From Massospora cicadina (lineage: Eukaryota > Entomophthoromycota > Entomophthoromycetes > Entomophthorales > Entomophthoraceae), in assembly GCA_022478985.1 (NCBI GenBank), contig JAKSZP010009661.1, positions 1 through 64,000 on the forward strand: a stretch of 64,000 bases of DNA, in the 5' to 3' direction. The notes beneath the pieces are model-generated. The model saw only the letters and a program-made list of their open reading frames with translations, made no database searches and had not been told where the DNA came from. Position 1 is the first letter of the stretch. The number at the start of each line of letters is the position of its first letter. The position numbers and the translations under genes were made by a program. Below are positions 1,325-62,372 of this stretch, one piece after another.

Positions 1325-2494
1325 TGTTGGGATTTTTGCCAATATTCCCAGCTGACTAGATTACCAGGGGTCACTAAGGGATGTTTCTCTATAGCAAATT
1401 GAATTAAATATTGGTTGACCCTGATTTCAGGGTAGCAATGTTCAGGGGGACTTTAGGTTATACGCCTGGGTCAGATCCATTTTTGGATTAATCCAGATGA
1501 ATGATTATAAATATCGTTGGGCAGAGTTGCCAATGAAATAGGGACATCTGATAGATGATTGATAATTAGCTATCAGGTGTACTGATTGAAATCAGTCAGA
1601 TTTCATCACTGACCAGTTTGGAATTTAAAGATCAAGTTGTAAGGTGAGTGATGCCATCTGCAACTAGCAAATTGATCAGTTGTTTCACAACCTGCCTTAA
1701 TGGGTAACAAGTCCCATTTCCTAAGCAGGTCTTTGCCAAATATGGTTGGTTTGCTGGGATCAAGATGAAAACTTTAGGGACACATTTTTTGACTCTTTTC
1801 ATTTTAGTTCTTAAGGATATCCAATGATGGAATCCTAGCCAGGATGGGGAAGACCATTGCTGATGAGATGAGGATGGGTAATTCAATGGCAATGGCTGCT
1901 GTTTCATTGAGGAGGTGCAACTAAGGGTTGGGCACTGAATACCCACTATGAATTCCTCTAAGAATTCACTAATTAAATATTTAGACATGTACCGAGACAG
2001 ATACTTAGACATATACTTAGACAATAAGCGCTAATTCTCAGAGTATTATTAAGATATACTTTATCAGAATCCATTTTAAGTTATATTCTTTCAAAAAAAA
2101 TTTGCTGTGTGCTCTAATTGGGTGACTCTTTAAAATAAAGAGCAAGGATCTGAGCATGGATCCAGAGAAAAGAAGCTGAACTAAATCAGGGATTGCTGCC
2201 AACAGTGTGTCACCAAAGAGAAACCATAAACAAGGATCTGAGCGTGGATCAAGTTAGGCAGTACCAGAGAACAAATCCCTATCAAGGACATTTTAAGTAT
2301 TTTGAGAGGAAATACTGGCCAAGCGTTGGCCCTAATTATAGTACTTTACACAACTACAGATAATAGTCTCTATACTATTTTTTACAAATACATCTTACTA
2401 TCAGACAATGTGGAGGATTGCACAACAACAAACATGTATATAAAAAATTAGGAGTTATCAGATGAGAATAATCAAGAATTCTAGAAAATCATCA
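1325..2494 (+). repeat. 5' LTR of A1
   Basis: It starts TGTTGGG and ends in CA immediately before the primer site. It is 1170 bp, close to the split 3' LTR (about 1179 bp after removing B1), the A4 LTR (1169 bp) and the A3 LTRs (about 1162 and 1166 bp). All share the opening block through GACTAGATTACCAGG. Near 1975-2025 the motif CTTAGACATA repeats three to four times; on the minus strand this makes a spurious repetitive peptide. No TATA box can be assigned with confidence. Confidence 0.85.
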
Positions 2495-2513
2495 ATTGGT
2501 GCTCACTACAGGG
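2495..2513 (+). other. Primer-binding site of A1
   Basis: The sequence ATTGGTGCTCACTACAGGG follows the LTR end. TGG next to the LTR is the usual start of a site complementary to a tRNA 3' CCA end. The same site follows the LTRs of A3 (on the minus strand, ending at 61204), A4 (63758) and, with one change, E1 (26938). The tRNA species was not identified. Confidence 0.75.
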
Positions 2514-5216: not shown

Positions 5217-6560
5217 ATTGTTTGACAAATATTAGGAAGTATTTTCATAAGACAACCATGATCTGGAATGCACAAGAGATGTGATCCACAAGGTCAATAC
5301 TGGGGAAAACTTGCCAATCAGGATGAGACTGATTTGACAGTCAAAGGGTGCCAAAGCAGTAGTGTAGGAAGAAATCAGCAAACTAGTGAAGCATGGGCTT
5401 CTAGTTCTGTCATTGAGTTCCTGGGAAAGTTCAATTCTTATTGTGAAGAAGAAGGATGGATCTAATCAAGTAGTAATTGATTATAGGAAGCTGAATAAGA
5501 TTACAAAAAAGGATTTGTACCTACTAACAATAATCAATTATGTGCTAGATCAATTGGGAGAAGCAAAGTATCTCTCCATAATGAATCTAATATTGGGATA
5601 TTAGAAAATCAATTTTACAAGAGAAGATCAAGAGAAATATGCAATTATCACCGCTCAGGGGCTATATCAATTGACAAGGATGCCCCAGGGTCTGTGCAAT
5701 GCGCCTGCTACATTCCAGAGGGTCATGAATGCAATACTAAATAACTTGAAGTTATCATGCGTCCTGGTGTACTTGGACAATATAGATGTGTTCAGTAGGA
5801 CGTTTACTGACCATTTGCAACACTTATAGGAAGTGTTCAAGAGACTATCCATGGCCAACCTAAAGATTAAGCTAAAGAAGTTTCACTTTTTTAAGAAATT
5901 GTTGAAATATATGGTTTTTTGTGATCAACTCTAGTGGAATGCAGCTGCAAGCCCATAATATTGAAGCCATTTAGAGCAAATGGTTTGCCAAAGAGTGTCC
6001 AAGATAATCAAGTGTTCCTTGGAATGGTCAGATACTATAAACATATTCAGGATTTTTCAAGAATTGCTGAGCCCCTCTTCCATTTGCTAAAAGATCTGAA
6101 GAAAGGATTCGTTTGGAATGGAGAATCTCAGAAATACTTTGATGAGTTATGCCAGTACTTAATAGATTCTCTGATTTTGAAATATCTGAATTTTGATAAA
6201 GAATTTCTAATACAAACCTATGCTTTGTTGATGGCGATCAGCACCATATTTAGCAAAGTAGACAAACTTGGGGATGAACATCTGGTGGCATATGTGAGCT
6301 GGATACTCACATATGTTAAGAGGAAGTACACCATAAATGAGCATGAATGCCTTGCAGTCATTTATACCTGTAAACAGTTTTGGGTGTACATCCATGAAAT
6401 GCACTTTGAGGTGGTGATGGACCACTCCTCATTGTGTTGGCTGCACAATTTATGAGAACCAGAAGGACAACTGGACTGATGGGCACTAAAACTACAGGCT
6501 TACAATATATGAGATAGTCTACCAAGCTGGGGCTTCTCATCAGAATGTGGATAGCTTATC
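5217..6560 (+). pseudogene. pol: Reverse transcriptase and RNase H of A1
   Basis: The RT shows the VIDYRKLNKIT block (5473-5505), the QGLYQLTRMPQGLCNAPATFQ block (about 5655-5720) and the catalytic turn YLDN at 5770-5781, where YLDD is expected. The connection and RNase H follow: FLGMVRYYKHIQDFSRI (about 6016-6065), AYVSWIL, then HFEVVMDHSSLCWLHNL ending at 6455. Frames alternate and TAG or TGA replaces several expected Trp codons. In an active element this enzyme copies the RNA and removes the template strand. A1 cannot make it. Confidence 0.85.
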
Positions 6561-7790
6561 GCAGTTACCAAAGGTCCAGCTGGTATACCAGCAGGGATGA
6601 GCTATTATAAAGAATGGTCAACAGAGAAATTGGGAATGAGCCCTGAAAAATTCAAGGTTCACTTTGAAAAGTGATGTAAAACACTGAGCATATGGTTGGA
6701 CAAGTCTTTAAGATGATCAATGGGAAGTGATTACTAATCCCAAAGCTGTTGGAATGAGCAGCTATTGTTCAAGCCGCTTATAAGGTTGTTGGGCATGGAA
6801 GTCTGAGAAAAATGACTGACCATATTTGACAATACTACTACTGGGATTCCATCAACTACTATGTTGTGGACTATCTGGCTTGCTGTGTGGAGTGCCAGTT
6901 GTACAAGCCAAGTAAGGATATGACTGGATACTGACTGGTCAACCTGAGATTTTCTTGGATATGGTGTACATCAATGTGATGGGACCACTGATGATGAGCA
7001 CAGGGGGATTCAAGTACATCATAGTTGAAATCAATCATATGACAAGATGGATCAAGATGAAGGCCCTGACAATAATAGGCACTACCAGTACTGCAAAACT
7101 CATCCTAGATCAAGTAGTATACTGACATGGATGCCCACAAGTTCTTCTGAGTGACAATGGGATGAATTTCACACCTCATATGATCCCACAATTAAATGAA
7201 ACAATGTGGATCCAAGGAGTCATGTCTGTACCCTACCAGCCAGAGATAAACAGAATGGTAGAATGAGTTAATATGATGCTGATTGTGACACTGAGGAAGC
7301 TGGTCACAGGAAGAACTTCCATGTGGGAAACATACCTGAGCTCAGTGACATTTTCTTACAATATCAGTCATCATATGGTGATGAGAAAAATGTTATTTAA
7401 GCTGCTATATGGAAGGAAGAAAAATTGTCGCTGACTTTATATTTGGTGGTGGAATCAACATCAGGGATGAGTGCTGAGCAGTACCTGAAACAATTGATGA
7501 ATATCCTGATTGAAATGCAATCACAAGCATTTAATACAACTTTAAGAAAAGATTCAAGCAAAAATGACGGTTGATAATAATTGACTAGCCTTATCAGAAT
7601 ACCAAATAGGTGAAAGAGTTGCCTATTGTGATATGCATGGTTTTAGGAGAAGAAACAAGTTAGATGCATTTTTGTTGATTCCATTTGAGATTATCACCAA
7701 GATGGCAATGGACGCTTACTCCAGCAAGAACCTCTTGGATGGAAGGATAGTAAATTGAGTCCATGTAAAATATTTAAAGAAATGGAATGA
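6561..7790 (+). pseudogene. pol: Integrase of A1
   Basis: The order is typical. The zinc-binding start has H-x4-H (near 6785-6800) and CCVEC (about 6882-6896). The catalytic core has MGPLMMSTGGFKYI (from about 6978), SDNGMNF (about 7150-7170) and then the Glu position in RMVE (near 7255). The GPFEI-like end is near 7680 and NRVHVKYLKKW near 7760. The first catalytic Asp is Asn here (YINVMGPL). Several stops replace Trp or Arg codons. There is no chromodomain after the last block, unlike family B. Confidence 0.82.
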
Positions 7791-7965: not shown

Positions 7966-8136
7966 AGGATCCATTTTAGGGGGAATAAAATAAAAAGATG
8001 GACTGCTGAACTGAAAAAAGGTCAAGTCTTATGGAAAAAGAAGAAAAAAATAAAGAGTATAGATAAAAATATTTTCAAAAAAAGATTATAAAAAACATAT
8101 AGAAAAATGATATAATTTTATAATTTTTATTTTTTA

Positions 8137-9303
8137 TTATTTATCCTTGATTTGGGGATGATTCTGCCTATGTTGCCTCATGTAAAGGGAGAATGGATCG
8201 CAGTAGGAGTAAATAAAGCATCAAAATCTAAGTGAGATCAGATGCTAGTGAGAGCTAGACCTACTCAAAACCAAGTTTGTTGAGTGGATGCAGATCCCTG
8301 TGAGAAAGCAACTAGGGGAAGAGAAATTGAATTGTCAGAAGATGCCAAACGTGATACCTCAGAATGGGGAGGGAAGCAATAGCATAAAAAAGGCAGTCAG
8401 TGAATAACCCCAAGTAATCTCATTATGGCACTGGAGCTTGAAGACTAGTCTTGAGCACTTGCTAACAGGCTTCATCAAGAGCAGAGGACATATGGGTCAG
8501 CATTTTCAAGGGTTATTAGGTGGAGGTTGCCAAATCATGCCCCCTAATAAATCCATCAGTGGAAGATACTGATGGGATGTGTCAGAAATGAGATAGTCAT
8601 GCAAGGAGCAAATGGCATCTTGCAGGTGATGACTACAAGCTTCCCAGAAGCTGAAGCAGAATGAGTGATGGAAGCTGGGAGAGACTAGAAGCTTTGTGGC
8701 CCAATTTTGAAGAACTTGACCAGCAAAGTGAAGATCATAGGCTGCAACATCTCAATCTAGGATGTTAACAAGATTGGCAGAGTTCAGAGCTATGGACAAA
8801 GACTTGGTTACTTGGGCCCTTAATTATGCATAAGTGAGTTCAAAATGTACACTGTTTCCAATGGTTAGTTTGGTGGCCAAAACAGCTGGCTTGTAGATAT
8901 TAACTGAGTCAAAAGAGGAACTCCAGAAGCAATTCTGATCTGGTGAGAAAAGAACAATCATGAGTAGAGGGCATTGCTTCAGGGGGTTTATGATGATGGT
9001 AGGGGAATCTGTGAATGGAGCCAGATCCAAGAGAGTTTTTAATATAACTCAGGAATCTATGACAGAGGAAACTTGGTCATGAGTCTTTCAAGACAATTGG
9101 TAGCCTGGTTTTGTTGAGGTTGGTTTTCATTTCCAGTAATTCCACAGAAGGACTGGCTATGGGTACTTGACTGGGAGTATGAGTCCTGAAAGGACCATAG
9201 AACATCTTCTGGTGCACAGACTGACTCATCAGCTGGAAGAGCCAAAGTCTTTATCAGACATGTTATTAAGAAGCTGTTGATACTGAGAATCAGAATTTAA
9301 CAT
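8137..9303 (-). pseudogene. Antisense open reading frame of clade A (copy in A1), decayed
   Basis: This frame runs opposite to gag-pol, between integrase and the 3' LTR. The start ATG (9303-9301) opens MLNSDSQYQQLLNN and the end (stop at 8139-8137) reads RQHRQNHPQIKDK. A3 has the same start and stop and nearly the same span (1171 against 1167 bp). Shared internal blocks include KPAVL-TKL-IG-S-HF, FAGQVL, EACSHHLQDAICSLHDYL and GGMIWQPP. The product would be about 388 residues with a basic C-terminus. This copy has several stops and frameshifts. I recognise no protein family. Antisense genes in this position are known in some plant Ty3 elements of the Tat lineage; homology with those is not shown. 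Confidence 0.7.
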
Positions 9304-9870
9304 ATGAGCTGGATGAGAAGGGGACGTCAGACTTATATGGTAGTTGACAATATGCACTCTGAAATCAATTAAGCTCTAATTTTGGAGAAATCAATCTCAA
9401 AATTAATTGGATAAGCTCTTCAGAGAAAAATTATAATTGATACAAGCCAAGAGGTTATTTTGAGAAAGTAACAAAGGCAAATATAAATGAGCATTCTTAA
9501 TTGCACTGCAAAACAAACATCAATGGCAAGAATTTCTTGTTGAAGATGAGAAGAGAATCAGGAAATTGATGACACCAGACCAAGAATCCTGAATATGACA
9601 CTGGGTCATATGCCCTGATGGGGGAAAACTGGATCCTGGGATTAATATTGTCATGAGTAAATAAATAAGCCTGGCATGACAGATGGTTGTGGGAACTGCA
9701 CTTGAGTAGGTGGTAGCAAAGAGAAAAAGGAAGAGAGCTGCATGCCAAAGGTCATCCCAAACAGCATTGAGTACTGATTGATTGTACTCTCATTTAACAA
9801 ATAAAGTAACTGAACAAGTGTCTGAAGCAGTATTCTTCTGCACCAATCCTTTTCTTGCTGTAAATTTAGG
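9304..9870 (-). other. Upstream part of the antisense unit of A1
   Basis: Between the antisense start and the 3' LTR lies about 570 bp that still matches A3. An upstream ATG at 9755-9753 (MTFGM in both copies) and the peptide block RAYDP-SYSGFLV within 9497-9748 are shared. A pyrimidine run ending TTTTGCAG on the minus strand (near 9510) matches TTTTTTCTGCAG in A3 and could be a 3' splice site. This could be a 5' exon, an upstream frame or leader. E1 retains part of the same sequence. Confidence 0.45.
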
Positions 9871-9884
9871 CAAGAGGGGGGATG
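9871..9884 (+). other. Polypurine tract of A1
   Basis: The purine-rich run around GAGGGGGGATG lies directly before the 3' LTR, where second-strand DNA synthesis is primed. A3 has the matching run (complement of CATCCCCCC, 53978-53986). Confidence 0.75.
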
Positions 9885-10080
9885 TATTGGGAATTTTGCC
9901 CATATTCCCAGCTGACTAGATTACCAGGGGTCACTAGGGGATAATTCCTTATAACAAAGTGAATTGAATACCAGTTTATCCCAATTTCAGGTTAACAATG
10001 TTTAGGATTTTAGGTTATTTACCTAGGTTAGATCCATTAGGGATTGATCCAGATGAATGCTTAAGATCTCTTTGGGCAGA
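9885..10080 (+). repeat. 3' LTR of A1, first part
   Basis: It aligns with 1325-1520 of the 5' LTR (GACTAGATTACCAGGGGTC, then GATCCAGATGAATG). It is cut at GGGCAGA by element B1 and resumes at 16073. The first bases read TATTGG rather than TGTTGG. Confidence 0.85.
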
Positions 10081-10928
10081 TGTAAGGAGAGTTTCTATAA
10101 CTCTCCTGTTTCCAGAGTGGTGGTGCATGGTGCACCAAGCCAACGCATGGAAACTAGCTGTTATTACCAAAGTTACTAGAGCCCAGAAAAGGGTGCTGGA
10201 GAAATAATAACTTAAGGGAAAGAGTGCAATCATTATAAAAATTCCCACACCAAAAATGATGCAGTGCACCAAGAACTAAGAGATAAGCGTCCCAGGTTGG
10301 AGGGAACCTGGGAAAACCAACGGTGCACTAGGGGCAAACCTGATCATATGTGAAATGATATGGTTAATGTAGTGTGAGACCTCCTCAATGGGGTCCACGC
10401 ACAGGATCATTTGGAATAACATAAGTAAAATAGAAAAATGGGAAAATGTTTATTGGGAAGTCAACCCACAAGGAATGTTGGTCAGGGAAACATAATCAAA
10501 CTACGTCAGGGAAATTGGAATCTGCCAAAGTGGTCCCAAGAACCAATCTACCAATAGGCACAGACTACCATCTGAATTGGTAGAAAACACTGAAACTGAC
10601 TTCACTCGAGTAATCAATTGAAGTTGGATTTGACCCAAATGTGTGTTTTCATAAATGGAATGGGTTTCAAAACCCCATTAATTGACTAACCAAATTGATA
10701 CATCCACATTAATTGTGTAAACTGTCCATTATAACACCTGGGCTGATGTAAGGAGCTGGGTGTTAAGCACCTCACTAGTACCAACCTGGGCATATTTAGC
10801 TTGTACCCAGCACTGGTCCAGTGTGTGCATGAGGTCAGAGAGGGCCTGAAGCTTCACCTTCTGGACCTTCTGGCGCCCAGCCTTATCCTTGGGGTTGGTA
10901 ACTAATATGATGTCATTTAACCATGACA
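10081..10928 (-). repeat. 3' LTR of B1
   Basis: 848 bp. In element orientation it starts TGTCATGG (10928) and ends CTCTCCTTACA (10081). It is preceded on the minus strand by the purine run GGGAGGAGAGGGTAA (10943-10929), a polypurine tract. The LTR end holds a short inverted repeat, GAGAGTT and AACTCTC, four bases from the terminus. Confidence 0.92.
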
Positions 10929-10970
10929 TTACCCTCTCCTCCCAACGGGGCTTGACCCCCCTCCAGGGGC

Positions 10971-12240
10971 TTATGCAAGGGAAAATTTCTTGTAGGATGG
11001 GGCCAACTTTATGGCAGAAACGGTTGGTTTGGGTTGAGATCCAGCAGCCTGAGGGAAATGCTCATGGAAGGCTTTAATCAGATCTTGGGCATGCACAAAG
11101 TTGCATACTGGAACCCAACTGTTCTCTGCAGCGTCAAAACTCTTCCAGGATACCAAATACTCAAGCCATCTTTTAATGCAGCGTGAGGCAACTATTTCTT
11201 TCACTTCCTACTCTGGCGCCCTATTCATGAGATAGGCCTCAGGAGTCTCTGGTGGTGGGCCCTCAAACAACGTCAATTTGCTTTCATGGAAGACAGAGAA
11301 GATCCAAAATGAAGAGGGAAGATCTAGCTGATAGGAGGCATGGCCCACCTTTCTAACAATGCGGTAGGGGCCAATCCTCTTTGGTCCCAGCTTCTTGCAT
11401 GGCTGCTTGATAGGGATGTTACAAGCATCAAGCATCACAAGATCCCCTTTCCTATATGTGGGACCCACTAGGCGTTTACCATCAGCATTCTCCTTATACA
11501 CTTGCATTGCCACCTCCAAACTTGTGGAAACCCCCTGGTGGACCTTCTTGATAGTCTTGGCAAAGTTCACCACCGCTTCAACCTTAGAACCACAGCTGGC
11601 CTTCAAGTTAAAGGTGGGTTTAAAGCCATGGTTGGTGAAAAAAGGGGAACAACCAATAGAAGAATGCATAAAGTTGTTGTAACTAAATTGGGCCATAGGG
11701 AGGTGAGATACCCAATCTGAATGATCTGCGGCAGTGTAACACCACAGAAACTGTTCCAAGCACTGGTTCACTCACTCTGTCTGCCCATCTGATTGAGGGT
11801 GATAGGCAGTTGAGCAGCAAGGGCAAATCTGAAGAGTCTTACACAACTTTTTCCAAAAGATGGAGGTAAACTGGGGTCCCCAGTCACTGATTATTTTTGG
11901 GGGAACCACATGGAGCACAAACACATGAGTGACAAGAGCTTAGCCATCTCAGCCATAGTTATTGTTGTTCTTCAGAGAATAAAGTGGCAAATTTCATAAA
12001 ATGGTCCACCAGCACCATGATGGCATTGTAACCATCAGAGACAGGTAACTCCACAATAAAATCCACTGATAGGGAAGTCCAGGACCCTTCAGCCTTTTGG
12101 ATGGGTACCAACAACCCCGCTAAAGGTTGACAATTAGGTTTCATCTGATTGCAGATCAGGCACTTCTTACAATACTACCCCACCTAAGCAGGCACCCCTT
12201 CCAATTGTACATGCATCATATTAACCGCAACACCTTTGCT
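10971..12240 (-). pseudogene. pol: Integrase with C-terminal chromodomain of B1
   Basis: The zinc-binding region (HHDGLTVGHPGKAK, then Cys pairs near 12150-12180) precedes the core. The core has SVDFIVELP (about 12060-12080), ISDWGPQF (near 11880, Trp replacing the usual Arg) and the Glu in DGQTE (near 11790). All three acidic positions survive. NQCLEQFLWCYTAADHSDWV and the GPKRIGPYRIVRK block (about 11340-11400) follow. The segment 10990-11204 has chromodomain features: IVASR, LEYLVSW with the aromatic and acidic residues FDAAENSW, and a terminal helix. A stop near 11770 and a frame change near 11205 break the gene. Confidence 0.88.
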
Positions 12241-13920
12241 TTACCAGGATGACCAACGGTGAGTCCATCATGGTGGTCTTGGATGATTTCCAGGCGCAGT
12301 GGTCCAGCAGGAACCCATAGGCGTCCCTGAAACCACACCATCACATCCTTCACATGATAGCCCCTGGAGAGATTCTTTTGATTCAAAGCGCTTTTAGAAA
12401 GTATCATAGTATATTCAGCTGCTAGCAGCTGAGAAAGGACTACCTTTCTGAACATACTGTATTCCTCTTCATTTTTCAGAGGGGAAAGAGCTGGCCCGCT
12501 GGCTGAGGGAGATGGAAGTTGGGACACAATTTTATTTGGCGAAATCATCAACTGTGTATAATGAACTTCAACCTCCCTGGGATCAGGCATTAAAGCAGGG
12601 TTGCAGCTCAAAGCATCTGCCAAACCATTATCCTTGCCCTAGGTGAACTAATATGTGAATGCAAATTGGGCAAGAGTCTCATGCCAATGGGTCTGCTGTG
12701 GGGTTAGGACATGAGGAGCGTGGTAGTACAGCAAGGCATGGTGGTCTGTATGTACCCAGAAAGGTTGGGCTGATCCATGCAAGTGGTGACGCCATAAAAC
12801 AGTGCCTCCACCACTGCCAGTAACTCCTTATCATAAACGCGTAATTCAACTCTGGAATAGACATTTTCCTAAAAAATATTCCACCAGATGCTCTATCCCA
12901 TATTTGCCTACTTGTAACAAGGCAGCCGCTATGGCGAAGTTGGAGGCATCCATAGACACAATGAACTTTTTAGAAGGGTTGATATGGTGAAGGATAGGCG
13001 TGGACAACAAGGTGCACTTCACTGCTTGGAAAGCATCCTCCAAAATGGAGGACCACTGAAGTACCTTTGCACCGCTTGCCTTATATAAGGGTGCTGCCAC
13101 CTTGGAAAGATTTGGCATGAACTTCTTGAGGAACGTACATGTCCCCAAAATTCTTCTCAACTCCTTGACTGAGGTGGGGAAGGGCCACTCACAAATTGCC
13201 TTCTCCTTTTCCAGAGTTATCATGTGTCCTTGGTCAAACATGACGTTGCCCAGAAAAGTGACCTGGGACTTGAAAAATTCACACTTGCTTATCTTCAGTG
13301 TAAGGCTAGCTGCCTTTACCTCTACACCACATGCTGAAGGTGTACTGCATGAAACTTATATTCAGAGGAAAACACCAGAACGTAATCCATGTAGGCAACT
13401 GTGCATACCCCTAATAAGTCCCCCAACGCTGCATCAATGTGGCATTGAAAGATAGCAGGGGCATTCTTAAGTCCAAAGGGCATGACCTGAAACTGGAAGA
13501 TCCCTTTTCTGGTATAGAATGCGGTTAACCACTCTTGTCCCTTTTTAATCCAGATCTGATTGAACGCATTGAGGCATCCAGCTTGGAGAAGACCTTCACC
13601 TTCTCCACATAACGTGCAATCTGTAAATCAAAGGGATGGGATGGAGGTCTGGTACAGTAATGTTATTGAGGTTCCCATAGTCTACGCAGGGGCATAGAGT
13701 ACCATCAGCCTTCTCAACAAAGAGAAGTGGGGATCAAAAAGGGGAGGTACGCCAAAAAATTGCACCTTTGGCTAACTGATCCTTCACCCACATATCCTAC
13801 ACCTCTTCCTCTCGCACAGTCAATGGGTAAATGGGGGAAGATATACGCACCAGATCCACAGTGAGCTTAAAGTTACAATCAAATTCAGAGTGCTCAGGAA
13901 GTGTGTTAGTGGATGCTGCA
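12241..13920 (-). pseudogene. pol: Reverse transcriptase and RNase H of B1
   Basis: RNase H and the tether lie at 12846-13241: SMDASNFAIAAALLQVG and the LRRILGTCTFLKKFM connection. The RT palm lies above this, with FQVMPFGLKNAPAIFQ (about 13435-13490) and YMDY at 13382-13393, where the second catalytic Asp codon has become Tyr. The segment near 13530-13600 encodes the WIKKGQEWLTAFYTRKGIFQ block in pieces. Stops and small deletions occur near 13245, 13560 and 13640. This is typical Ty3 RT architecture, inactive. Confidence 0.85.
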
Positions 13921-14961
13921 TTAAAATGAAGATTCCATCCCATCCAAACAGGATGGTAGGGGAACCTCCACAGAGGGCTTCAGCAAAGGGGCAAGATTAA
14001 GAGTATGAACATTGGGCCAATGGGGCAATTTGCCCTGGGTGTTATCCTCTGACAAAGGAACAATCAACTTGTAACTGTTGGACAAAGATAGGGATAGAGT
14101 GTTTTCTTTCAAATTAGTCCTGACGTCAAACTTTCTCCACCACTCTACACCCAAAATAATGGGGAACAAGAGGTTTCTGATAGCTTGAAAATGGTCAGAC
14201 AGAAGATAGGCGCCCACCTGGTAGTCCACTAACCCCATGACGTTCAGCATAGGGATACCTTGAGAAGCCCCGCGCTTTTACCATACCATCTGAGAGTAAC
14301 TCAACTCAAGGTGGTCAGCAAAGTCTTGGTCAATAAAATTATTAAAGGCACCAGTATCAACTAATATAGTTGTGCTGAACTTCCCCAAAAGGGGATATAA
14401 GGGTAGCGGTCAATAAGAAGTATCCATAATGGGATTTATTCAAAGCAGAAAACGCCACTACCTCACCTGAAAGTTCTTCCTTTGGTGTGAGCAAGCCATC
14501 AGGGTATGTTTGAAATCATAGAAGGGGGAGGGATAGTGGGCCACTCTTACTATTGAGGCCACATATCCCACCACACCTTCTGCAGGTGCCTATACATTAT
14601 TATATTTCAAAATGAAGTTTGTTTTCCACTTCCTTGGTGCCCCAGATCATGGTAGGGGTCAAATGTGAGTTCTCAGGGGTAATCTGATATACTGGAATAG
14701 GGTCCTCATCCAGGCCATAAGAATCAATTAATGGTTTAGAGGTAGAGATAAGGTTTTCATTATAAAATGCAGTTTTAGATGTGAATGACTCTATCCCTCA
14801 AACAACAACAGAACAGCTGACGTTATCCAAGGCCAACACCCCCAGGCCCACCTGTGCCAATTATGCCGGCATCATCTGAAATTGCTGGCAAAGAAAAACT
14901 CATTTATTTACCTCAAATTGGTAATTTCAGTGGAGATGGGAAATCATGACTTTCAGACCTT

Positions 14962-15013
14962 AAAGCGTCTGTATCCACGACCATCTAGTACTAAAAAAAG
15001 CGTCTGTATCCAC
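14962..15013 (+). mobile_element. Micro-retroposon insertion 3, with target duplications
   Basis: The 17-bp repeat AAAGCGTCTGTATCCAC (14962-14978 and 14997-15013) flanks 18 bp, GACCATCTAGTACTA plus A's. It lies inside B1, so it is younger than B1, which is itself younger than A1. Confidence 0.87.
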
Positions 15014-15203
15014 CAGGTACGAGCATGAAGGGTGGGTACTTTCCAATTGGAGGCAACCATAATAACGCCAAGTTGCTCCAACCTTTGGGAAAAAAGAGGA
15101 AACAGTGGTGTGGCTGACCACAGCTAAAGCCCACAGCCAGCGCCCACCATTTACACCTCAAAAAAGTTCCACACAGAAAAAGTTCATGCACATAAAATTG
15201 AGT

Positions 15204-15217
15204 GGTTAGTTGACTAA
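15204..15217 (-). other. Putative primer site of B1, not TGG-type
   Basis: In element orientation TTAGTCAACTAACC directly follows the 5' LTR end (15218). It does not begin TGG. The 10-mer GGTTAGTTGA (15204-15213, plus) is the exact reverse complement of TCAACTAACC inside the 5' LTR (15821-15830). B2 (TTAGTCACCAACC) and B3 (TTAGATGACCAACC) have related sites. This fits self-priming as in Tf1-type elements, but it is an inference. Confidence 0.45.
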
Positions 15218-16067
15218 TGTAAGGAGAGTTTCTATAACTCTCCTGTTTCCAAAGTGTTGGTGCATGGTGCACCAAGCCAACGCATGGAAACTAGCAGTAA
15301 TTACCAAAGTTACTAAAGCCCAGAAGAGGGTACTGGAGCAATAATGACTCAAGGGAAAGAGTGTAATCATTATAAAAATTTCCACAAAAAAATGATGCAG
15401 TGCATCAAGAACAAAGGGGTAAGCGTCCCAGTTTGGAGGTAACCTGGGCAAACCAACGGTGCACTAGGGGCAAACCCGATCATATGTAAAATGCTATGGT
15501 TAATGTAGTGCAAGACCTCCTCAATGGGGTCCGCACACAGGATCATTCAGAATAACATAAATAAAATGAAAAAATGGGAAAATGTTTATTGGGAAGTCAA
15601 CCAATAAGGATTGTTGGTTAGGGAAAACATAACTAAACTATGTTAGGAGAAATTGGGGTCTGCGGAAGTGGTCCCAAGCACCAATCCACCAATAGGCACA
15701 GACTACCATCCAAATCTGGCAAAAACACCAAAACCAACTTCACTTGAGTAATTGATTGAAGTTGGATTCAACCCAAATGTGTGATTTCAAAAAGTGGGAC
15801 AAGTTTAAAAACCCTGTTCCTCAACTAACCAAATTAAACCTTCTGCATTAATTGTGTAAACTGTCCATTTTAACACCTGGGCTGACATAAGGGGCTAAGC
15901 ATTAGGCATCTCACTAGTACCAACCTGATCATATTTAAAAAGTACCCAGCGTTGATCCAGTGTGTGCCTGAGGTCAGGGAGGGCCTGAAGCTTCACCTTC
16001 TGGGCCTCCTGGCACACAGCCTTATCCTTGGGGTTGGTCCCCACTATGATGTCATTTGACCATGACA
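15218..16067 (-). repeat. 5' LTR of B1
   Basis: 850 bp, colinear with 10081-10928 and clearly diverged from it by point changes and small indels. That indicates substantial age since insertion. The terminal inverted repeat GAGAGTT/AACTCTC is kept. Confidence 0.92.
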
Positions 16068-17055
16068 GCAGAGTTGCCAATGAAATAGGGGCATCTGATA
16101 GCTGATTGATGATTAACTATCAGGTTTACTGATTGAAATCAGTCAGGTTTCATCACAGACCAATTGGGAATTTAAGGATCAAGTTGCAAGGTGAGTGATG
16201 CCACCTGCAACTAGCAAATCAATCAGTTGGTTTACAACCTGCCTTAATGGGTAACAAGTCCCATTTCCTAAGCAGGTCTTTGCCAAATATGGTTGGTTTG
16301 CTGGGATCAAGATGAAAACTTTAGGGACACATTTTTTGACTCTTTTCATTTTAGTTCTTAAGGATGTACAATGATGGAATCCTAGCCAGGATGGGGAAGA
16401 CCATTGCTGATGAGATGAGGATGGGTAATTCAATGGCAATGGCTGCTGTTTCATTGAGGAGATGCAACTAAGGGTTGGGCACTGAATACCCCTTATGAAT
16501 TCCTCTAAGAATTTACTAATTAAATATTTAGACATGTACTGAGACAGATACTTAGACATATACTTAAGCATATACTTAGACAGAAAGCGCTAATTCTCAG
16601 AGTATTATAAAGATATACTTTATCAGAATCCATTTTCAAATTCTATTCTATTTTAAGAAAATTATTGCAGTATGCTCTAATTGGAGACTCTTTAGGATAA
16701 AGAGTAAAAATCTGAGCTTGGATACAGAGAAAAGAAGCTGAACAAAATCAGGGATTGCTGCCAACTGTGGGTCACCAGAGAGAAACCATAAACGAGGATA
16801 TGAACATGGATCAAGTTAGGTGGCACCAGGTAATAAACCCTATTAAGAACATCCTAAGGTTTTTAGAGGAAATACTGGTCAAGCGTTGGGCCTAATTCTA
16901 GTACTTTATTCAACTACAGATAACAGTCTCCATACTATTATAAACAAAATACATCTTACTATCAGACAACGTGGAGAATTGCACAACAACAAACCTGTGC
17001 ATAAAAAATCAGAGGTTATCAGCTGAAATAATTACTAACCCTATAAATTTTAACA
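16068..17055 (+). repeat. 3' LTR of A1, second part
   Basis: It resumes with GCAGAGTTGCCAATGAAATAGG, continuing from 10080, after the duplicated GCAGA (16068-16072). It matches 1521-2494 closely and ends TTTTAACA at 17055, where B2 sequence begins. Confidence 0.85.
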
Positions 17056-17261
17056 ACTATTTAAGAACTTTGCCACCATTGGTCTTATATAAAGGCGCCG
17101 CTACCTTGGTATGACTTGGAACAAACTTTTTCAGGAAGGTTCAAGCCCTCAAGAAAGCTCCTCAACTCCTTAACTGAGGTTGGTGTGGACCTCTTGCAAT
17201 TTGCTTTATTTTTCTGGAGTGATCATGTGGCCTTGGTTGAAAACAGTGTTGCCCAGGTGTT

Positions 17262-25948: not shown

Positions 25949-25986
25949 TGTCATATCTCATGCATATTTTGGACTAACATACAGAG
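25949..25986 (+). repeat. 5' LTR of B3, first 38 bp
   Basis: TGTCATATCTCATGCATATT resembles the B1 LTR start TGTCATGG...TCATATTAG. E1 follows at 25987. The rest is at 33712. Confidence 0.55.
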
Positions 25987-26938
25987 TGTCAGAATTGCAG
26001 ATGAACACATAGTCCAACCCTTTGACCAAATATGAGATTTAACAATTAGGGTATAATCATAGAGGGTCAGCAATAGTGGCTGACTGATGAGAATATTGTT
26101 GGGTGGAATCCCCAATGATATTAGAAGTCACTGACTATGATTATTGTTAGGCATCATCCCTGATGATAATTGAGGCCACCAACATATGATAATTTTGTCA
26201 GGCATCATTCCCAATAAAATTAAGCAATAATTTGATATTAGGATAATCACTGATAGTCAAATTATAGGGAATTTTCAGAGCGGAATGGATTGGAGTCATC
26301 AGAAACTATCAAAACGTTTGAACGCCAGAGGAATAGTGGAATCATCATCAGCCAAAACAATCAGTTTCATGTACCTAATACTAATTGTTTGGTCCACCAA
26401 ATGCCCAAGGATCACACTGCCTAGAAAACCCAAGGCAACGGTACCCAATGAGATTTGGTGCCTAACACTAAGGGTTAAAACCAGTATAGGAGCACAAATA
26501 TTATCATTGGACAGCTGAAAAGTTGTGTGCCAATTCTAACTATAAAAACTCCAAATAATTCCCTAATAAAATTAGATTTACACTGATATTAGCAATAGTT
26601 GTTTAAACATTGGTTGTTTTAAAATTACTCTCAAGAGAAGAGTGCAAGGATCAGATATCCTTAAGTTAGCAATATCAAAATCTCCACTTGGCTCTGCAAG
26701 AAGGGAATAGGGAAAGTGTTTCCTACCAGATCAGAATATCTTCAAAAAAAAGAAGCACCAGTTTAGCGTTGGACTTTACTATCTACATGGCTTTTGGGAA
26801 ATCAACTATAATATTAGTCTTCATACTATTATTGCCCCTGTCTAACAATCTCATTCAAATAATCAATGCCAGGATCCATGAATCCGTGAAGTTGAAATCC
26901 AGGGCTAAAAGCGAGCTACAAAGCCCACAATTTTAATA
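25987..26938 (+). repeat. 5' LTR of E1
   Basis: It begins TGTCAGAATTGCAG and ends at 26938 before TTGGTGCTCACTATAGGG. An internal triplicated motif GGCATCAT-CC (26150-26215) lies in diverged sub-repeats about 60 bp apart, also present in the 3' LTR. Confidence 0.9.
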
Positions 26939-26988
26939 TTGGTGCTCACTATAGGGGTAGTTGAGTTGTCAAAAGCCAATTTAAAATA

Positions 26989-28560
26989 ATGATGTCTTTA
27001 AAGGAAGAGCTTTGAGTGCTCTGGGCAGAACTACAGACTGTCAATGAAAATGTGCTCAGCTTGGCATCTCAGGCTGATGTTAGTACATTGAAGGAGCATA
27101 TTATCAAGATAGAGGAAACGCTTGAACAACTAGGAATAGTTAATAATGACTTATGCAGAAAAGTTGCCTATTTAAAATGGAAAGAGGGCAAACTCATCAA
27201 GGAAATTTTGTTTCAGAAAACTGAATAGGAAGCAGATTGAGAATGCATCTGACAGTTTCATGAGGAGATGGCGAAAATGACCAAGCATATAGAGGAGTTG
27301 GAGAAACACCAATGTGATTGTGAACAATTTGAGGCAAATGATGCTGAAGCAAAGGCATGTAAAAAGACAAGCAATTAGACCTCTCCACCCCAAAACATGC
27401 CTAAACCATTTGCTGGTGTGTCAGAAATGACTCCCAAAGTCACTCTTATGGCTTCTCAAGTAGCTGGGATAGGATCTCCTATTAGCATAACAAATGAGAA
27501 ATTTCAAAATATGCCAAAATTGCCCACCTTTAACTGGGATAATGCCCCAGTGTTCTTCCGGTTATTTGAGATGACCATGTTCAGCTATGCGGACTGACAA
27601 AAAGCAGTAACTGTAATGAACTTCCTTAGCACAGACTGCCAAAATCTGGTGCTTTCTCACCTCTACGGGGACAATTAGCCATATGCAGAAGCCAAAGCCA
27701 CCATTATGTTGGAGTTCAGAAGCCCCACTCAGATGGCAAATTGTAAACAAGAGTTCATGGGTATTCAATTCCTTGAAGATGAGACTCTGGCTTGTTTCAC
27801 CGACCATTTTTACCAAGAAGCTCAGATCTTGGCAGGAGCAAATGTGTTAAGTGACTTTGATGCCCGCATAGCCATGCAGTCAGCACTTTGGCCCTATTGA
27901 GACTTGCATCAGATAGTGGTGGTGGCGCTAGTTACTGAAACAACAACCTCTCAGATGGTAGACATCTGAAGATGCTGGGAGCCACGTTTGATGCTCTCAA
28001 TTGTACTTTTAAAATAATTGAAACAAAAGCCCAAAAATATTGTAAAATTTACTGAGCCATCTTAAGAATTTGAGGGTCAAGTTGTGTCAGAAAGTAAACC
28101 TGAAGTTCAAAAACAAGTGGACAAATTGACAAACCGCTGTTTCCAATGTGGGAAGTCAGGCCATGTAATTGCCCAGTGTCAGGAAAGAGAGCCAAAGGAT
28201 CAGATAAATCTCGTTAAGCCTCAAGAGACTGGTTTATATTTGGGAAAGGGGCCAGCAGTCTAGAATAGGAACAATCTAGTACTGCTACTAAACCTGTTTT
28301 GTCTGACATAATGTGAGAGAAAATTGATATCTCTGATCTATTTGTGGATGATGACTCACCGGATCTGCTCCATCAGGGAATTAACTTGGATGTTAATGCT
28401 ATAACTCAAGCCAAAGCAAAAGGGATCAATCCCAAAATTGTTAGCAAGGTCACTTGGCCCTACGTACAACAGCTGGCAGAGAAAGTTAGATCTGCCAAGA
28501 GCCCTGAAGACCTAGTCAAAATGAATTTGGATGAGGATAACATCTCTTTACCATCAGCAT
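26989..28560 (+). pseudogene. gag: gag of E1
   Basis: The likely start is the ATG at 26989 (MMSLKEEL). Coiled-coil sequence follows (LWAELQTVNENVLSL; then MTKHIEELEKH near 27272). The capsid begins near MPKLPTFNWDNAPVFFRLFE (27512-27575) and continues to about 27900 across frames. The zinc knuckle is canonical, C-x2-C-x4-H-x4-C, at 28138-28179 (CFQCGKSGHVIAQC). The tail contains LDVNAITQAKAKGINPKI. A few stops interrupt it, fewer than in A1. Confidence 0.82.
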
Positions 28561-29100
28561 GATCAAGGAATCATTCTCTTATTTATACACTCAGATAATC
28601 CACACACTTGATTCAGTGAATAAGGCTGCTATCCATTCAGTATATACTTTATTACAATACTCAGAGTGTGCCTATGTCAATATTCTAGTCAATAGGATAA
28701 GAGTCCAAGCCATAATTGATAGTGGAGCGCCAATCAACATTGTTTTCACCAAATAAGTAAATTGTATGAAAATCTCACCAGATTTGGAGCACTGAAAAGA
28801 GTATGGTATGGCTGGACCAGATGTTACCATCTCATGTGGAGCCTACAGTGAGCTATCACTTTGGTTTGGATTGCTGATGGTGCAAGCTCCCACTATAGTG
28901 CTGGCCAATCCAAACTATGACATAATTATCAGGACAGAGTTCTTGAGAAAGTATGGGGTGAAATGCAATTTCAATGAAAACATTCTGACAATATTGGGGC
29001 AGATATTGCCTTTGGTTTATCAGCAGAAAGGAGAACCTCCCTGACAAAAAAGAATAACTTTGTCAATTTAATTTGTAGTGATGGTATTATATCCATTCAC
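28561..29100 (+). pseudogene. pol: Protease of E1
   Basis: The active-site block is AIIDSGAPINIVFTK (28711-28755) with the catalytic D-S-G-A kept. The second part is IIIRTEFLRKYGVKCNFNEN (28923-28982). A stop after FTK and one near 28795 break the frame. Confidence 0.82.
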
Positions 29101-29599
29101 TATAAACTAATCAGACAGAAATGGAAACCAATGCTGACAGAAATTATGGAGAATTGAGGAATACCTCTAAGGGTAGATGCAGCAAACACTATTACGCCAG
29201 AGGCTCAAATCATAGTTAACACCAGGTTAATAGTGGAACTCCCAGAACAACTTTATGGAGAAATTATCAATCCCTGGGAAAAATCAAGAATTGAACTGTA
29301 GGTTGTGCCAGGGATCTTAATGCCAGGTCACAAAGAGATACAAGTATTAGTAGCCAATCTAGGAGAAAAGCTAATGGAAATTGTATAAAATCAGACCATT
29401 GCATTTCTGCACTTGCTCTCAACGGTGGAATTATATGCTTTTCATGAATTTGGATCATTTTCTGTAATGGGACTGCTGGCAGGAGTTACTGAAAGTTTCA
29501 ATGTATTAGTGGATTGCAAGCAGCTAGCCAATCTGACTACAAATCAGCAGGAGGATGTGCTCCGATTATTTGAAAAATATTGTACATACTTGCTCATAA

Positions 29600-52815: not shown

Positions 52816-53977
52816 AGTAAAAAATTACTAGAGGGGTTTTTATTGGCAAATAACCCTAGTAAACTTTTTACTGCGCAGGTTTGGTTTTCTTGTGCACTTT
52901 GTCACATTATATAATATATTAGATTATCAGTTGATAATAGTATGATGACTATTATCTGTAGTTGAGTATGAATTTCTATATCTAAGCCCAACGTTCAGTC
53001 AATATTCCCAATTAAATACTTAAGATGTTGTGATATATAGATTCTTACCCTCATTATATCCAACCTGATCTTTGCTGAGATTCTCTGGTGACAGTCTCTT
53101 CAGACCAACACATAGTTGGCAGCAATCCCCAATATTGTCTCCTTCTTCTCTAGATCCCCACTCAGATCTTTACTCTTTTCTCTAAGAGTCTCCCAATTAT
53201 TACGCACAGAAATAATATCCTTGAGAAGAATAGCACAATGGAAAGCTGATAATATTTTACTACTTAAACTATATACCAGATGAAAACAATAGAACTATAC
53301 AACTCTGTTCTCATAAATACTGTTTTACCATCCAACTGTTTTTTATTATAAGTGATACTAGGGAGTTTATAGTGGATTTTCAGTCATCCAAACCTTAGTT
53401 GACCTTTTTCAATAAATAGCAGCCATTGCCATTGAATTATCCATCCTCATCTTGGCAGTGATGGTCTTCCCCATTCTGGCTAGGATTATGTTATTGGATA
53501 TCCTTGAGATCTAAATGGAAAGAGTCAGAAAATGTGTCCCTAACGTTTTCTTCTTGATCCAAGTGAACTAACCATATTTGGCTAGTAACCTGCTTAAGTA
53601 ATAAGACATGTTACTCATTAAGGCAGGTCATGCACCAACTAATTGATTTGCTAGTTGCAGGTGGCATCACTTGCCTTTCAACTTGCTATTCATTCCCAAT
53701 CATTTGGTGATGAAACTTGACTGATCCCAATTAGTACACCTGATAGTTAATCACTATTAGATGCCCCTATTCATTAGCAACTCCACCCAATGAGATCTTA
53801 AGTGTACATCCAGATCAATCCCCAATGGATATGACCAGGAAAATATCTTAAAATCCCCCAAATGTAGTTACTCCAAAAGTTGGTCTAACCAATTTCCAAT
53901 TCACTTCACCTTAGGATTTATCCTCTAGCAATTCCTGGTAATCTAGCAGGCTGGAAATATGGGCAAAAATCCCAACA
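52816..53977 (-). repeat. 3' LTR of A3
   Basis: In element orientation it starts TGTTGGGATTTTTGCCC at 53977, preceded by the complement of CATCCCCCC, a polypurine tract. It ends near TTTTTTACT at 52816. Confidence 0.87.
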
Positions 53978-54508: not shown

Positions 54509-54563
54509 AGTGCATAATGTCAACTTCAATATAAATCCAACATCCCCCTCTCATTCAGCTCAT

Positions 54564-55734
54564 ATGTCAAATTCTGAGTCACAATATCAGCAGCTTCTGA
54601 ATAGTTTTTCTGATCAAGACCTCTGACTCTTACAGCAGATGAGTTAGGATGCATGATAGAACCTTTTCTATGGTCCTTTCAGGACTCATACGCCTAGTCT
54701 GGTGCCAGCAGCTAGTCCTTCCATTGATTTACTGAAAATAGTAACTAATCTCTCCAAAACCAGGCTCACAATCATTTCAAACAACTGTTAGCTGATTCTT
54801 CCTCAGCATCAATTCCAGAGTTGAATTTTGAAACTCTCATGGATTCAGCTCCTTTTGCTGATGCTTTGACCATCATCATAGATGCTCAGGAGATTATGAC
54901 ATTTGCTCTTGATTGCTCATTCCTTGCCAGGTCAGACATGCTTCCTGAGTTCCTCTTCTGACTTGGACAATATTACAAACCTGCTGTTCTGACTAACAAG
55001 CTCATTATTGGTAGCAGTATTCATTTTAAGCTCCCCTATGCTAATCTTTCAGGCCCAAGTCACTGAGGCTTTGTCCCTAGTGCTGAATCCCTATGATCTC
55101 AATAACATCCTGGATTGGGATACTGCCACTTATGCTCTTCGATTTGCTGGCCAAGTTCTTTAAAGTTGGTCCACAAAGCTTTCAGCCTCACCCAGGTTTC
55201 ATCACTCATTTAGCTTCAGCTTGTGAGAAGCCTGTAGTCATCACTTGCAGGATGCCATTTGTTCCCTGCATGACTATCTCTTCACTGGCACCTTCCATCA
55301 GTATCTTATGCTGATGGCTTTAGTAGGGGGCATGATTTGGCAACCCCCATCAAGCATCCCTTGTACTGCTGCTGGCCCATATGTCCAGTGTTATTGATGA
55401 AGCCCATCATCAGGCGCTCAATACTAGTCTTCCAGCTTTGGTACCATATTGGGATTACTCAGGGTTATTCACCAATTGCCTCTTCTTATACTGTTGCTTT
55501 CCTCCCCACTCTGGGGCTTCACAATTGGCTTCATCTGACATCTCAATTTCCCTTCCCCTAGTCACTTTCTTGCAGGGATCTGCATCCACCTAAAGAACAT
55601 AGTTTTGTGTAGGTCTAGCCCTTGCTAGTGTCCAATCTCACATCAATTTTGATGGGCTGTTCATTCCTACTGCAATCCATCCTCCCCCTAAGAGGCAACA
55701 TAGGCGGAATAATCCTTGTATCAAGGACAATTAA
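54564..55734 (+). pseudogene. Antisense open reading frame of clade A (copy in A3)
   Basis: The start ATG at 54564 opens SNSESQYQQLLNS and the stop at 55732-55734 follows RQHRRNNPCIKDN; both ends match A1. Conserved blocks: MDSAPFADALTIII (about 54838-54880), YYKPAVLTNKLIIGSSIHF (about 54971-55027), LDWDTATYALRFAGQVL (about 55112-55162), EACSHHLQDAICSLHDYL (about 55228-55282) and LVGGMIWQPPSSI (about 55323-55360). It has a handful of stops and net one-base frame shifts across 390 codons. Predicted soluble and mixed helical, with a basic tail. No known family recognised. Confidence 0.72.
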
Positions 55735-55889
55735 TAAAGAAATTATAAAATTATATCAGTCTTTTCTCTATGCATTTTATAATTTTTTTCCAATATCTTT
55801 TATCATTTTTTTATTTTTATTCTTCTTATTTTCATGGGATTTGACCTTGTTTAGATTCAGCAGTCTGTCTTTTTATTTTTTTCCCAAAC

Positions 55890-61206: not shown

Positions 61207-62372
61207 TGTAAAAAATTACTGAGCTGGGGTCTTATCAGCAAACAACCCTAGTATTCTTTAAACTGCACAGGTTTGGTTTTCTTGTGCACTTTGTCACATT
61301 GTATAATATATTAGATTATTGGTTGATAATAGTATGATGACTATTATCTGTAGTTAAGTTTGAGTTCTTATATCTCAGCCCAATGCTTAGCCAGTATTCC
61401 TGATTAAATACTTAAGATGTCATGATCTAAGGATTTGTTCCCTCATTCTGTCCAACCTGATTTTTGCTGAGATTCCCTGGTGACAGTCTCTTCAGTCCAA
61501 CACACAGTTGGCAGCAATCCCCAATATTGTCTACTTCTTCTCTAGATCCCCACTCATATCTTTATTCTTTTCTCTAAGAGTCTCCCAATTATTGCACACA
61601 GCAATAATATCCTTGAAAAGAATAGCACAATGGAAAGCTGATAATAGTTTACTACCTAAACTATATACTGGATAAAAACAATAGAAATACTTAACTCTGT
61701 TCTCATAAATACAGTTTTACTATCTAACTGTTTATTATTATAAGTGTATCCTAGGGAATTTATAGTGAGGATTCAGTTGTCTAACCCTCAATTGACACCT
61801 CTATAATGAAATGGCAGCCATTGCTGTTAAATCGCCCATCCACGTCTCAGCAGCAATGGTCTTCCCCATCCTGGCTAGGATTTCATTGTTGGATATTCTT
61901 GAGATCTAAACGTAAAGAGTCAGAAAACGTGTCTCTAACGTTTTCCTCTTGATCCAAGCAAACTAACCATATTTGGCTAGTGACCTGCTTAAGTAATGTG
62001 ACTTATTACCCATTAAGGCAGGTCATGCACCAACTTATTGATTTGCTAGTTGCAGGTGGCATCACTTGCCTTTCAACTTGCTATTTATTCCCAATCATTT
62101 GGTGATGAAACTTGACCAATCCCAATTGGTACACCTGATAGTTAATTACTATCAGATGCCCTTATTTCATTGGCAACTCTGCCTGGTGAGATCTTAAGTA
62201 TTTGTCCAGATTGATCCCTGTCAGATATGACCAGGAAAATAACCCAAAATCCCCCAAACGTAGTTACTTTAAAGCTTGGGCCAACAGATTTCCAATTCAC
62301 TTCACCTTAGAGAATTATCCTTTAGTGATTTCTGGTAATCTAGCAGGCTGGTTTATGGGCTAAATTACAACA
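61207..62372 (-). repeat. 5' LTR of A3
   Basis: In element orientation it starts TGTTGTAATTTAGCCC at 62372 and ends TTTTTTACA at 61207, followed by AGTTGGTGCTCACTAC, the primer site. It is colinear with 52816-53977. Confidence 0.87.

What the first reader, a model, noticed from the sequence alone, without database searches (positions are those of the whole stretch)
8137..9303. Conserved antisense gene between integrase and 3' LTR in clade A
In A1 (8137-9303, minus) and A3 (54564-55734, plus) a frame of about 388 codons lies on the strand opposite gag-pol. Both copies share the start (SQYQQLLN), the stop after RQHR-N-P-IKD, a nearly equal length (1167 and 1171 bp) and several peptide blocks such as EACSHHLQDAICSLHDYL and GGMIWQPP. 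Seen directly: the shared start, stop and blocks despite decay. Known: antisense genes occur at this site in some plant Tat-lineage Ty3 elements. Inferred: this is a coding gene of the element, possibly regulatory or accessory, of unknown family.
Basis: partly seen in the sequence, partly recalled or inferred. Interest (0 to 1): 0.86.

Follow-up and report, generated by a model that had tools for sequence, protein, structure and literature searches.

The report
Antisense gene in fungal retrotransposon
A now-dead family of Ty3-type mobile DNA in a very large, apparently fungal genome carried, on the strand opposite its own genes, a protein-coding gene of about 390 codons and unknown family that selection preserved while the family was spreading.

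Summary
The antisense gene is real, but both window copies are ruins and the host is probably not a plant. Read straight, the A1 frame (8137-9303, minus) holds 14 internal stops and A3 21, and both are frameshifted. In 70 copies from the window's own genome the aligned frame runs ATG to TAA over 390-391 codons. Its recurrent stops are all of the CGA-decay type (8 of 8 and 5 of 5 columns). Two subfamilies separate cleanly. Their 114 diagnostic differences in the gene fall 25/8/81 over antisense codon positions, against 8/8/7 in 590 columns upstream. dN/dS between subfamilies is 0.25 (0.21-0.31); integrase gives 0.33. Over 3,400 places match a 30-base gene tag. A TATA-like box starts 34-35 nt before the ATG in 51 of 70 copies and AATAAA follows the stop in 44 of 70, so it looks like a separate antisense transcription unit. 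Chitin synthase, uL2, TTAGGG repeats and CG-only decay point to a fungus. No relative was found. Best reading: an accessory, perhaps nuclear regulatory, protein. Function is inferred.

The parts
8137..9303 (-). Decayed copy of the antisense gene in element A1 (ATG at 9303, TAA at 8139-8137); frameshifted, with many stops
54564..55734 (+). Decayed copy of the antisense gene in element A3 (element on minus strand); frameshifted, with many stops
9332..9337 (-). TATA-like motif 34 nt before the A1 antisense ATG (candidate own promoter)
   Evidence: read by eye; TATA-like at -34/-35 in 51 of 70 copies
54530..54535 (+). TATA-like motif 34 nt before the A3 antisense ATG
   Evidence: read by eye
8126..8138 (-). 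AATAAA motifs at and just after the A1 antisense stop (candidate polyadenylation signal)
   Evidence: read by eye; AATAAA within 80 nt after the stop in 44 of 70 copies
55733..55738 (+). AATAAA overlapping and following the A3 antisense stop
   Evidence: read by eye
6964..7785 (+). A1 integrase region (sense), neighbour of the antisense gene
   Evidence: tblastn with P0006
56010..56974 (-). A3 integrase region (sense strand of A3)
5934..6455 (+). A1 RNase H open stretch (PF17919, PF17917), part of pol
1332..2495 (+). A1 5' LTR (approximate); PBS-like TGGTGCTCACTACAGGG starts at 2497
9882..10080 (+). A1 3' LTR, first part; split by a nested element 10080-16067; second part 16068-17056
16068..17056 (+). 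A1 3' LTR, second part
52817..53977 (-). A3 3' LTR
61208..62364 (-). A3 5' LTR (85.9% identical to its partner)

Best explanation
This is an antisense accessory gene of a Ty3-type LTR retrotransposon family in a giant, apparently fungal genome. It is a separate transcription unit read away from the 3' LTR: a TATA-like box 34-35 nt before the ATG, one open frame of 390-391 codons, TAA, then AATAAA in an AT-rich spacer before the end of integrase. Shown by sequence: position, orientation, frame, purifying selection while the family spread, and later decay by CpG deamination. Inferred: it is transcribed by the host polymerase from its own promoter, and its protein acts on the element's own cycle. 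The likeliest role is a nuclear or regulatory one, damping or timing sense transcription or helping the integration complex, by analogy with Grande GENE23 and retroviral antisense proteins. A short basic C-terminal run (PKRRHR in two of ten copies read) fits nuclear entry but proves nothing. All 70 copies aligned are dead.
For: Diagnostic substitutions between two subfamilies fall 25/8/81 by antisense codon position (chi-square p 2e-17), transversions 9/3/32; five of six sixths of the gene show it clearly and one weakly (5/0/6); upstream flank 8/8/7. Second positions change least in the antisense reading. Between-subfamily dN/dS is 0.25 (0.21-0.31) against 0.54 within subfamilies; integrase 0.33 against 0.47; none of six upstream frames is lower between than within by more than about 0.06. 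Recurrent stops in the frame: 9 of 9 columns CGA-type in 41 copies; the other five frames have 23-30 recurrent-stop columns, 3-15 of that type. ATG in 31 of 40 and 25 of 30 copies, terminal stop in 28 of 40 and 23 of 30. In-frame TAA or TAG at codon -11 in 65 of 69. Same place and orientation: integrase on the opposite strand in 57 of 70, LTR upstream in 67 of 70. 3,429 gene-tag matches. TATA and AATAAA. Basic C-terminus.
Against: No transcript evidence was available. TATA-like and AATAAA motifs in AT-rich DNA are weak; AATAAA is missing in 26 of 70 copies and a TATA-like motif in 11 of 70. A TATA box 34 nt before the ATG leaves an almost leaderless message if initiation is about 30 nt downstream. 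No homologue or fold supports any biochemical function: Pfam, PDB and 5.8 billion proteins gave nothing significant and the partial fold was unusable. The mirrored sense frame also has low dN/dS (0.34). Within subfamilies dN/dS in the frame (0.54) is no lower than in two sense frames (0.54, 0.55), and internal-branch parsimony is only mildly biased (312/241/343), so selection is read mainly from the subfamily split.
Confidence: 0.7

Rival explanations
1. The antisense RNA, not the protein, is the functional product: it pairs with genomic RNA and feeds RNA interference or damps expression, and the frame is incidental.
For: Antisense non-coding transcripts of LTR elements are reported, and PMC7264820 raises dsRNA regulation explicitly. 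A listing also shows transposon-derived antisense lncRNAs in a powdery mildew (PMC10648671, title and start of abstract only). A dedicated antisense promoter would serve this equally.
Against: A non-coding RNA does not produce 25/8/81 substitutions by codon position or synonymous change specific to one frame, nor a frame free of non-CpG recurrent stops. It may coexist with the protein.
Confidence: 0.1
2. A captured host gene or passenger carried as cargo in antisense, kept for a benefit other than element replication.
For: A complete unit with its own TATA and poly(A)-like signals looks like an inserted gene; no relative in Pfam or PDB.
Against: Conserved across two subfamilies about 25% apart, in the same place in 57 (integrase side) and 67 (LTR side) of 70 copies, with selection as strong as on integrase. 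No host homologue was seen, but only the best 106 of 29,534 candidates were scored, so a host paralogue could be hidden.
Confidence: 0.2
3. An env-like or other sense-strand gene sits here, and the antisense frame is its mirror image.
For: The sense frame mirroring the antisense third positions also has low dN/dS: 0.34 between subfamilies, and in the last third of the A1/A3 pair it does as well as the antisense frame by BLOSUM score.
Against: The sense frames have 23-28 recurrent-stop columns each in 41 copies, 11-15 of them of the CpG type. In the mirrored frame second positions would change more than first (25 against 8), the reverse of normal coding. Diagnostic codons are 58 synonymous to 42 in antisense but 41 to 52 in the mirrored sense frame.
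Confidence: 0.03
4. Chance: shared peptide blocks are leftovers of DNA similarity between copies, with no gene.
For: The window copies are both broken, and the elements are 75.6% alike over 4.9 kb.
Against: as above.
Confidence: 0.01

Closest known systems
brtn, the antisense gene of Boty-like Ty3 retrotransposons of the fungus Botrytis cinerea (Zhao et al. 2011, Virology; title seen in the reference list of PMC8365987, paper itself not read)
   Same: Fungal Ty3-type element with an extra gene antisense to gag-pol; PMC7264820 (parts 1 and 2 of 3 read) lists Boty among elements with antisense ORFs between pol and 3' LTR.
   Different: The sequence of brtn was not available here, so homology is untested. 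Here selection, copy number and promoter-like signals are measured on a dead family in another genome.
Grande GENE23 (maize; aORF-3R)
   Same: Antisense gene between pol and 3' LTR, transcribed from a promoter upstream of the gene; the protein is nuclear (as stated in PMC7264820).
   Different: Plant element; sequence relation not tested directly; nuclear location and transcription are not shown here.
Retand/RIRE2 antisense ORFs with TRP28 (PF04195)
   Same: Same site and orientation; 97% of Retand clusters carry a TRP28 antisense ORF (PMC11963269, parts 1-3 of 5 read).
   Different: No PF04195 match here; that paper says the domain appears only in flowering plants; the Retand pol-3' LTR region is 2.9-6.6 kb, here about 2.1 kb.
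Retroviral antisense proteins (HTLV HBZ; discussed in PMC7264820 and PMC11963269)
   Same: Antisense transcription unit at the 3' end of a reverse-transcribing element, proposed regulator.
   Different: HTLV uses an antisense promoter inside the 3' LTR (PMC7264820); here the candidate promoter is some 545 nt inside the LTR boundary. No sequence relation tested.

Membership tests
[quoted passage not shown]
   57 of 70 copies with integrase on the opposite strand downstream of the stop, 0 on the same strand; 67 of 70 with LTR upstream
Antisense additional ORF between pol and 3' LTR (aORF-3R / eORF-3'R) | At least 250 codons (threshold of PMC6317226, passages and section 13 seen) | tested here: met
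   Aligned frame of 390-391 codons; none of the 70 copies aligned is unbroken
Antisense additional ORF between pol and 3' LTR (aORF-3R / eORF-3'R) | Conservation similar to gag-pol proteins across copies | tested here: met
   dN/dS 0.25 against 0.33 for the integrase C-terminal stretch
Antisense additional ORF between pol and 3' LTR (aORF-3R / eORF-3'R) | Antisense transcript | not testable with these tools
   No RNA data; only TATA-like and AATAAA motifs
Plant Tat/Retand lineage | Plant host | tested here: not met
   No exact (TTTAGGG)4; (TTAGGG)4 present; Chitin_synth_1 twice; fungal-type uL2 by a small margin; CG-only decay. The plant NAM family search never got an answer
Plant Tat/Retand lineage | Second (archaeal-type) RNase H | tested here: inconclusive
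   Not seen in the 17 window open stretches searched against Pfam, not all of them A1; in element B little room between RNase H and integrase (by eye); whole pol not scanned
Plant Tat/Retand lineage | TRP28 (PF04195) in the antisense ORF | tested here: not met
   Four antisense pieces and ten copies gave no PF04195 match; the only hits were far below cut-off (DBD_HTH PF18430, 15 residues, E 0.23; IU_nuc_hydro PF01156, E 0.29)
brtn of Boty | Sequence homology to brtn | not tested
   brtn sequence not held; the protein-set searches found no relative of any kind at E up to 1
Athila-type env-like gene | Sense orientation with an open sense frame | tested here: not met
   23-28 recurrent-stop columns in each sense frame over 41 copies

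The most novel reading that the evidence does not exclude
A Ty3 retrotransposon lineage that helped fill a giant fungal genome carried a complete antisense regulatory gene with its own promoter and terminator signals, encoding a protein family unrelated to anything known. This would be a fungal, independently evolved counterpart of HBZ-type antisense regulators, and its loss or decay may be part of why the family died.
Probability: 0.35. Interest if true: 0.78.

Novelty: new variant of a known kind. Interest (0 to 1): 0.6.

Why it matters
[quoted passage not shown] in fungi one named case (brtn) surfaced in the searches made here. Here the coding claim rests on a codon-position test against flanking controls in 70 genomic copies, not on an open frame. 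It offers a way to tell a true antisense gene from an accidental frame in decayed elements: recurrent stops that are all CGA-decay products, plus subfamily-diagnostic sites. It also suggests that antisense accessory genes arose in Ty3 lineages outside plants, which makes the question of what they do testable in fungal systems.

Tried and rejected
Rejected: the plant Tat setting (host evidence); the straight frames as genes (frameshifts); a second antisense exon in the open stretch 53987-54508 (173 codons in A3): no third-position excess and its Pfam scan is empty. The clade B antisense ORF 32111-32707 (198 codons) has many genomic copies (40 scored of 1,594 candidates) but its letters could not be fetched, so selection on it is untested. 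Led nowhere: homologue searches by two alignments (none at E up to 1), a viral contig scan, PDB by sequence (one hit at E 0.25) and by profile (none), AlphaFold of a 103-residue middle piece (pLDDT 46.7; no fold search made), tRNA scan of the window (none; the PBS tRNA was not identified). The integrase search found two unnamed proteins at 49% identity and no lineage name.

Results against or weak: parsimony over 41 copies gives only 312/241/343 changes on internal branches, because most changes are post-insertion decay. Within-subfamily dN/dS is 0.54 in the gene's frame, no lower than in two sense frames (0.54 and 0.55). The mirrored sense frame is low between subfamilies (0.34). Diagnostic sites in the integrase stretch were few (9/0/7 in the gene's phase). 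uL2 scores of fungal chains (about 310-324 bits) overlap the fly (318), so that marker alone is weak. Copies were chosen by similarity to the window copies (best 40 of 10,205 and of 9,719 first-look candidates), so the sample is not random. Of the matches, the 29 loci returned beside A3 were used and 11 rows were not. One of the ten copies read (L014) slips out of register near its end.

Full report
WHAT IS THERE. The window holds Ty3-type LTR elements. A1 runs on the plus strand (5' LTR about 1332-2495, 3' LTR 9882-10080 continued at 16068-17056 around a nested element). A3 runs on the minus strand (LTRs 52817-53977 and 61208-62364). A third, related element, B, spans 25986-33709. Pieces of pol from A1 and B match RT, RNase H and integrase zinc-finger families. 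A1 and A3 are 75.6% alike over 4.9 kb. The reported frames lie where stated and share start, end and blocks. Neither is readable: A1 has 14 internal stops and A3 21 when read straight, and both carry small indels, so the register changes along the copy.

CODING TEST IN THE WINDOW. Anchored on the alignment, A1 against A3 gives dN/dS 0.28 in the antisense frame, 0.99 and 0.99 in the other two antisense frames, and 0.78, 0.97 and 0.38 in the sense frames. The sense integrase control gives 0.20, and the lowest of six frames in the upstream flank 0.41.

COPIES IN THE GENOME. The window's own assembly is 1.47 Gb in 16,968 contigs. The A1 stretch found 40 scored copies of 10,205 first-look candidates and the A3 stretch 40 of 9,719 (41 alignments). 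A protein search scored 106 of 29,534 candidates; the matches that span nearly the whole query carry at least four in-frame stops each, and partial matches two or more. A 30-base tag from the gene, up to 3 mismatches, is present at 1,786 + 1,643 places, against 0 for the reversed control. I aligned 70 copies: all 39 A1-side matches other than A1, fetched with flanks, 29 A3-side loci, A1 and A3. The tree splits them cleanly into 40 and 30; gene identity is 0.82 and 0.86 within and 0.75 between.

THE FRAME. In columns occupied by most copies the antisense frame needs no shift from ATG to TAA. ATG is kept in 31 of 40 and 25 of 30 copies and the terminal stop in 28 of 40 and 23 of 30. Just upstream the frame is closed: TAA or TAG at codon -11 in 65 of 69. 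Each of the 70 copies has 3 to 14 in-frame stops (TGA 289, TAA 112, TAG 66). Columns where stops recur in at least 30% of copies number 9 in this frame over 41 copies. All 9 are TGA columns in which CAA or CGA is also common, the two products and the source expected when a methylated CGA decays on either strand. The other five frames have 23 to 30 such columns, of which 3 to 15 are of this type. Split by subfamily it is 8 of 8 and 5 of 5.

SELECTION. Sites that differ diagnostically between the two subfamilies (at least 70% each) number 114 in the gene and fall 25, 8 and 81 on antisense codon positions 1, 2 and 3 (chi-square p 2e-17); transversions alone 9, 3, 32. Five of six sixths of the gene show it clearly; the fourth has few sites (5, 0, 6). 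In 590 columns upstream the tally is 8, 8, 7, and in the AT-rich stretch after the stop 5, 4, 7. Codons with such a change keep the residue in 58 of 100 in this frame, in 41 of 93 in the mirrored sense frame and in 3 to 13 of 89 to 94 in the others. Between-subfamily dN/dS is 0.25 (0.21-0.31), within-subfamily 0.54; integrase 0.33 and 0.47; upstream frames 0.50-0.81 between and 0.54-0.81 within. So the protein was conserved while the family replicated, and copies decayed afterwards with little sign of selection. Parsimony over 41 copies gives a milder bias (internal branches 312/241/343).

TRANSCRIPTION UNIT. A TATA-like motif lies within 120 nt upstream in 59 of 70 copies, and in 51 it starts 34 or 35 nt before the ATG; inside the gene 27 of 566 windows of 120 nt hold one. 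AATAAA follows within 80 nt of the stop in 44 of 70; the mirror motif TTTATT in 17 of 70; shuffling the same AT-rich letters gives 17%. The gene sits a median 580 nt from the LTR and 329 nt from the end of integrase, in the same order and orientation (LTR side 67 of 70, integrase side 57 of 70). This suggests an independent antisense unit; no RNA was seen.

HOST. Exact (TTTAGGG)4 is absent from the assembly and (TTAGGG)4 gives 84 + 99 overlapping matches. Chitin_synth_1, which I recall as typical of fungi, has two full matches and none in 14 prokaryote controls. The cytosolic uL2 (one of two L2 matches, read; the other I take to be mitochondrial) scores best, for one copy of the domain, against L2 chains that I recall as fungal (321-324 bits), above fly (318), with other fungal chains at about 310-317, mammals about 306 and plants about 301; the top-listed hit is a chain with the domain twice. 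The species of the chains are recalled. Copies decay at CG sites (0.39-0.47 per site), with CHG (0.04-0.07) about as low as CHH (0.05-0.07), and the window's CpG observed/expected is 0.13. Near a chitin synthase match lies a repeat 92-94% identical to sequence flanking two A-family copies, which suggests one genome; the stretch beside uL2 shows no match. Giant, Ty3-filled genomes whose Ty3 activity is not recent are described for Entomophthoraceae, and rusts are similarly inflated (PMC10515909, abstract, section 6 and passages). I do not name the species.

WHAT IT COULD BE. Pfam, PDB and the 5.8-billion protein set give no significant relative. Two of ten copies read in one frame end in PKRRHR, a basic run that others show altered or with a stop. 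By position it matches antisense ORFs (aORF-3R) reviewed in PMC7264820 (parts 1 and 2 of 3 read) and PMC11963269 (parts 1-3 of 5 read): Grande GENE23 (nuclear, own promoter), Retand (TRP28) and, in fungi, Boty brtn. I rate the gene itself as near certain, an accessory role in the element's cycle as likely, and a nuclear regulator as the best single guess.

NOVELTY. The kind is known; the protein family, and the evidence of selection on such a gene in a fungal-type genome, are new as far as the searches show (open-access papers only, mostly seen as listings).

Noticed in passing
window 38486-38980 (+): An open stretch matches dUTPase (PF00692, E 2.9e-7), upstream of an integrase zinc-finger stretch at 40359-40817: a dUTPase-bearing Ty3-type element; such elements are reported in some fungi (PMC2864245, passages).
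   Followed up: partly
window 32111-32707 (-): Element B also has an antisense ORF (198 codons, ATG) between integrase and 3' LTR, low in complexity at its C-terminus and with peptide repeats; it has no Pfam match and its copies vary in length. Not tested for selection.
   Followed up: partly
window 53987-54508 (+): A 173-codon open stretch starts at the A3 3' LTR boundary on the antisense strand, upstream of the gene; no coding signal seen.
   Followed up: yes
window 10080-16067: A nested LTR element (LTRs 10080-10928 and 15217-16067, 86.8% alike) with an integrase SH3 domain (PF24626) sits inside the A1 3' LTR.
   Followed up: no
window 2497, 26940 and 61203 (-): A1, A3 and B share a PBS-like TGGTGCTCACTA(C/T)AGGG just inside the 5' LTR; the matching tRNA was not identified.
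   Followed up: no
whole window: Extreme CpG depletion (observed/expected 0.13); element copies show CG-only C-to-T decay without clear CHG excess.
   Followed up: yes
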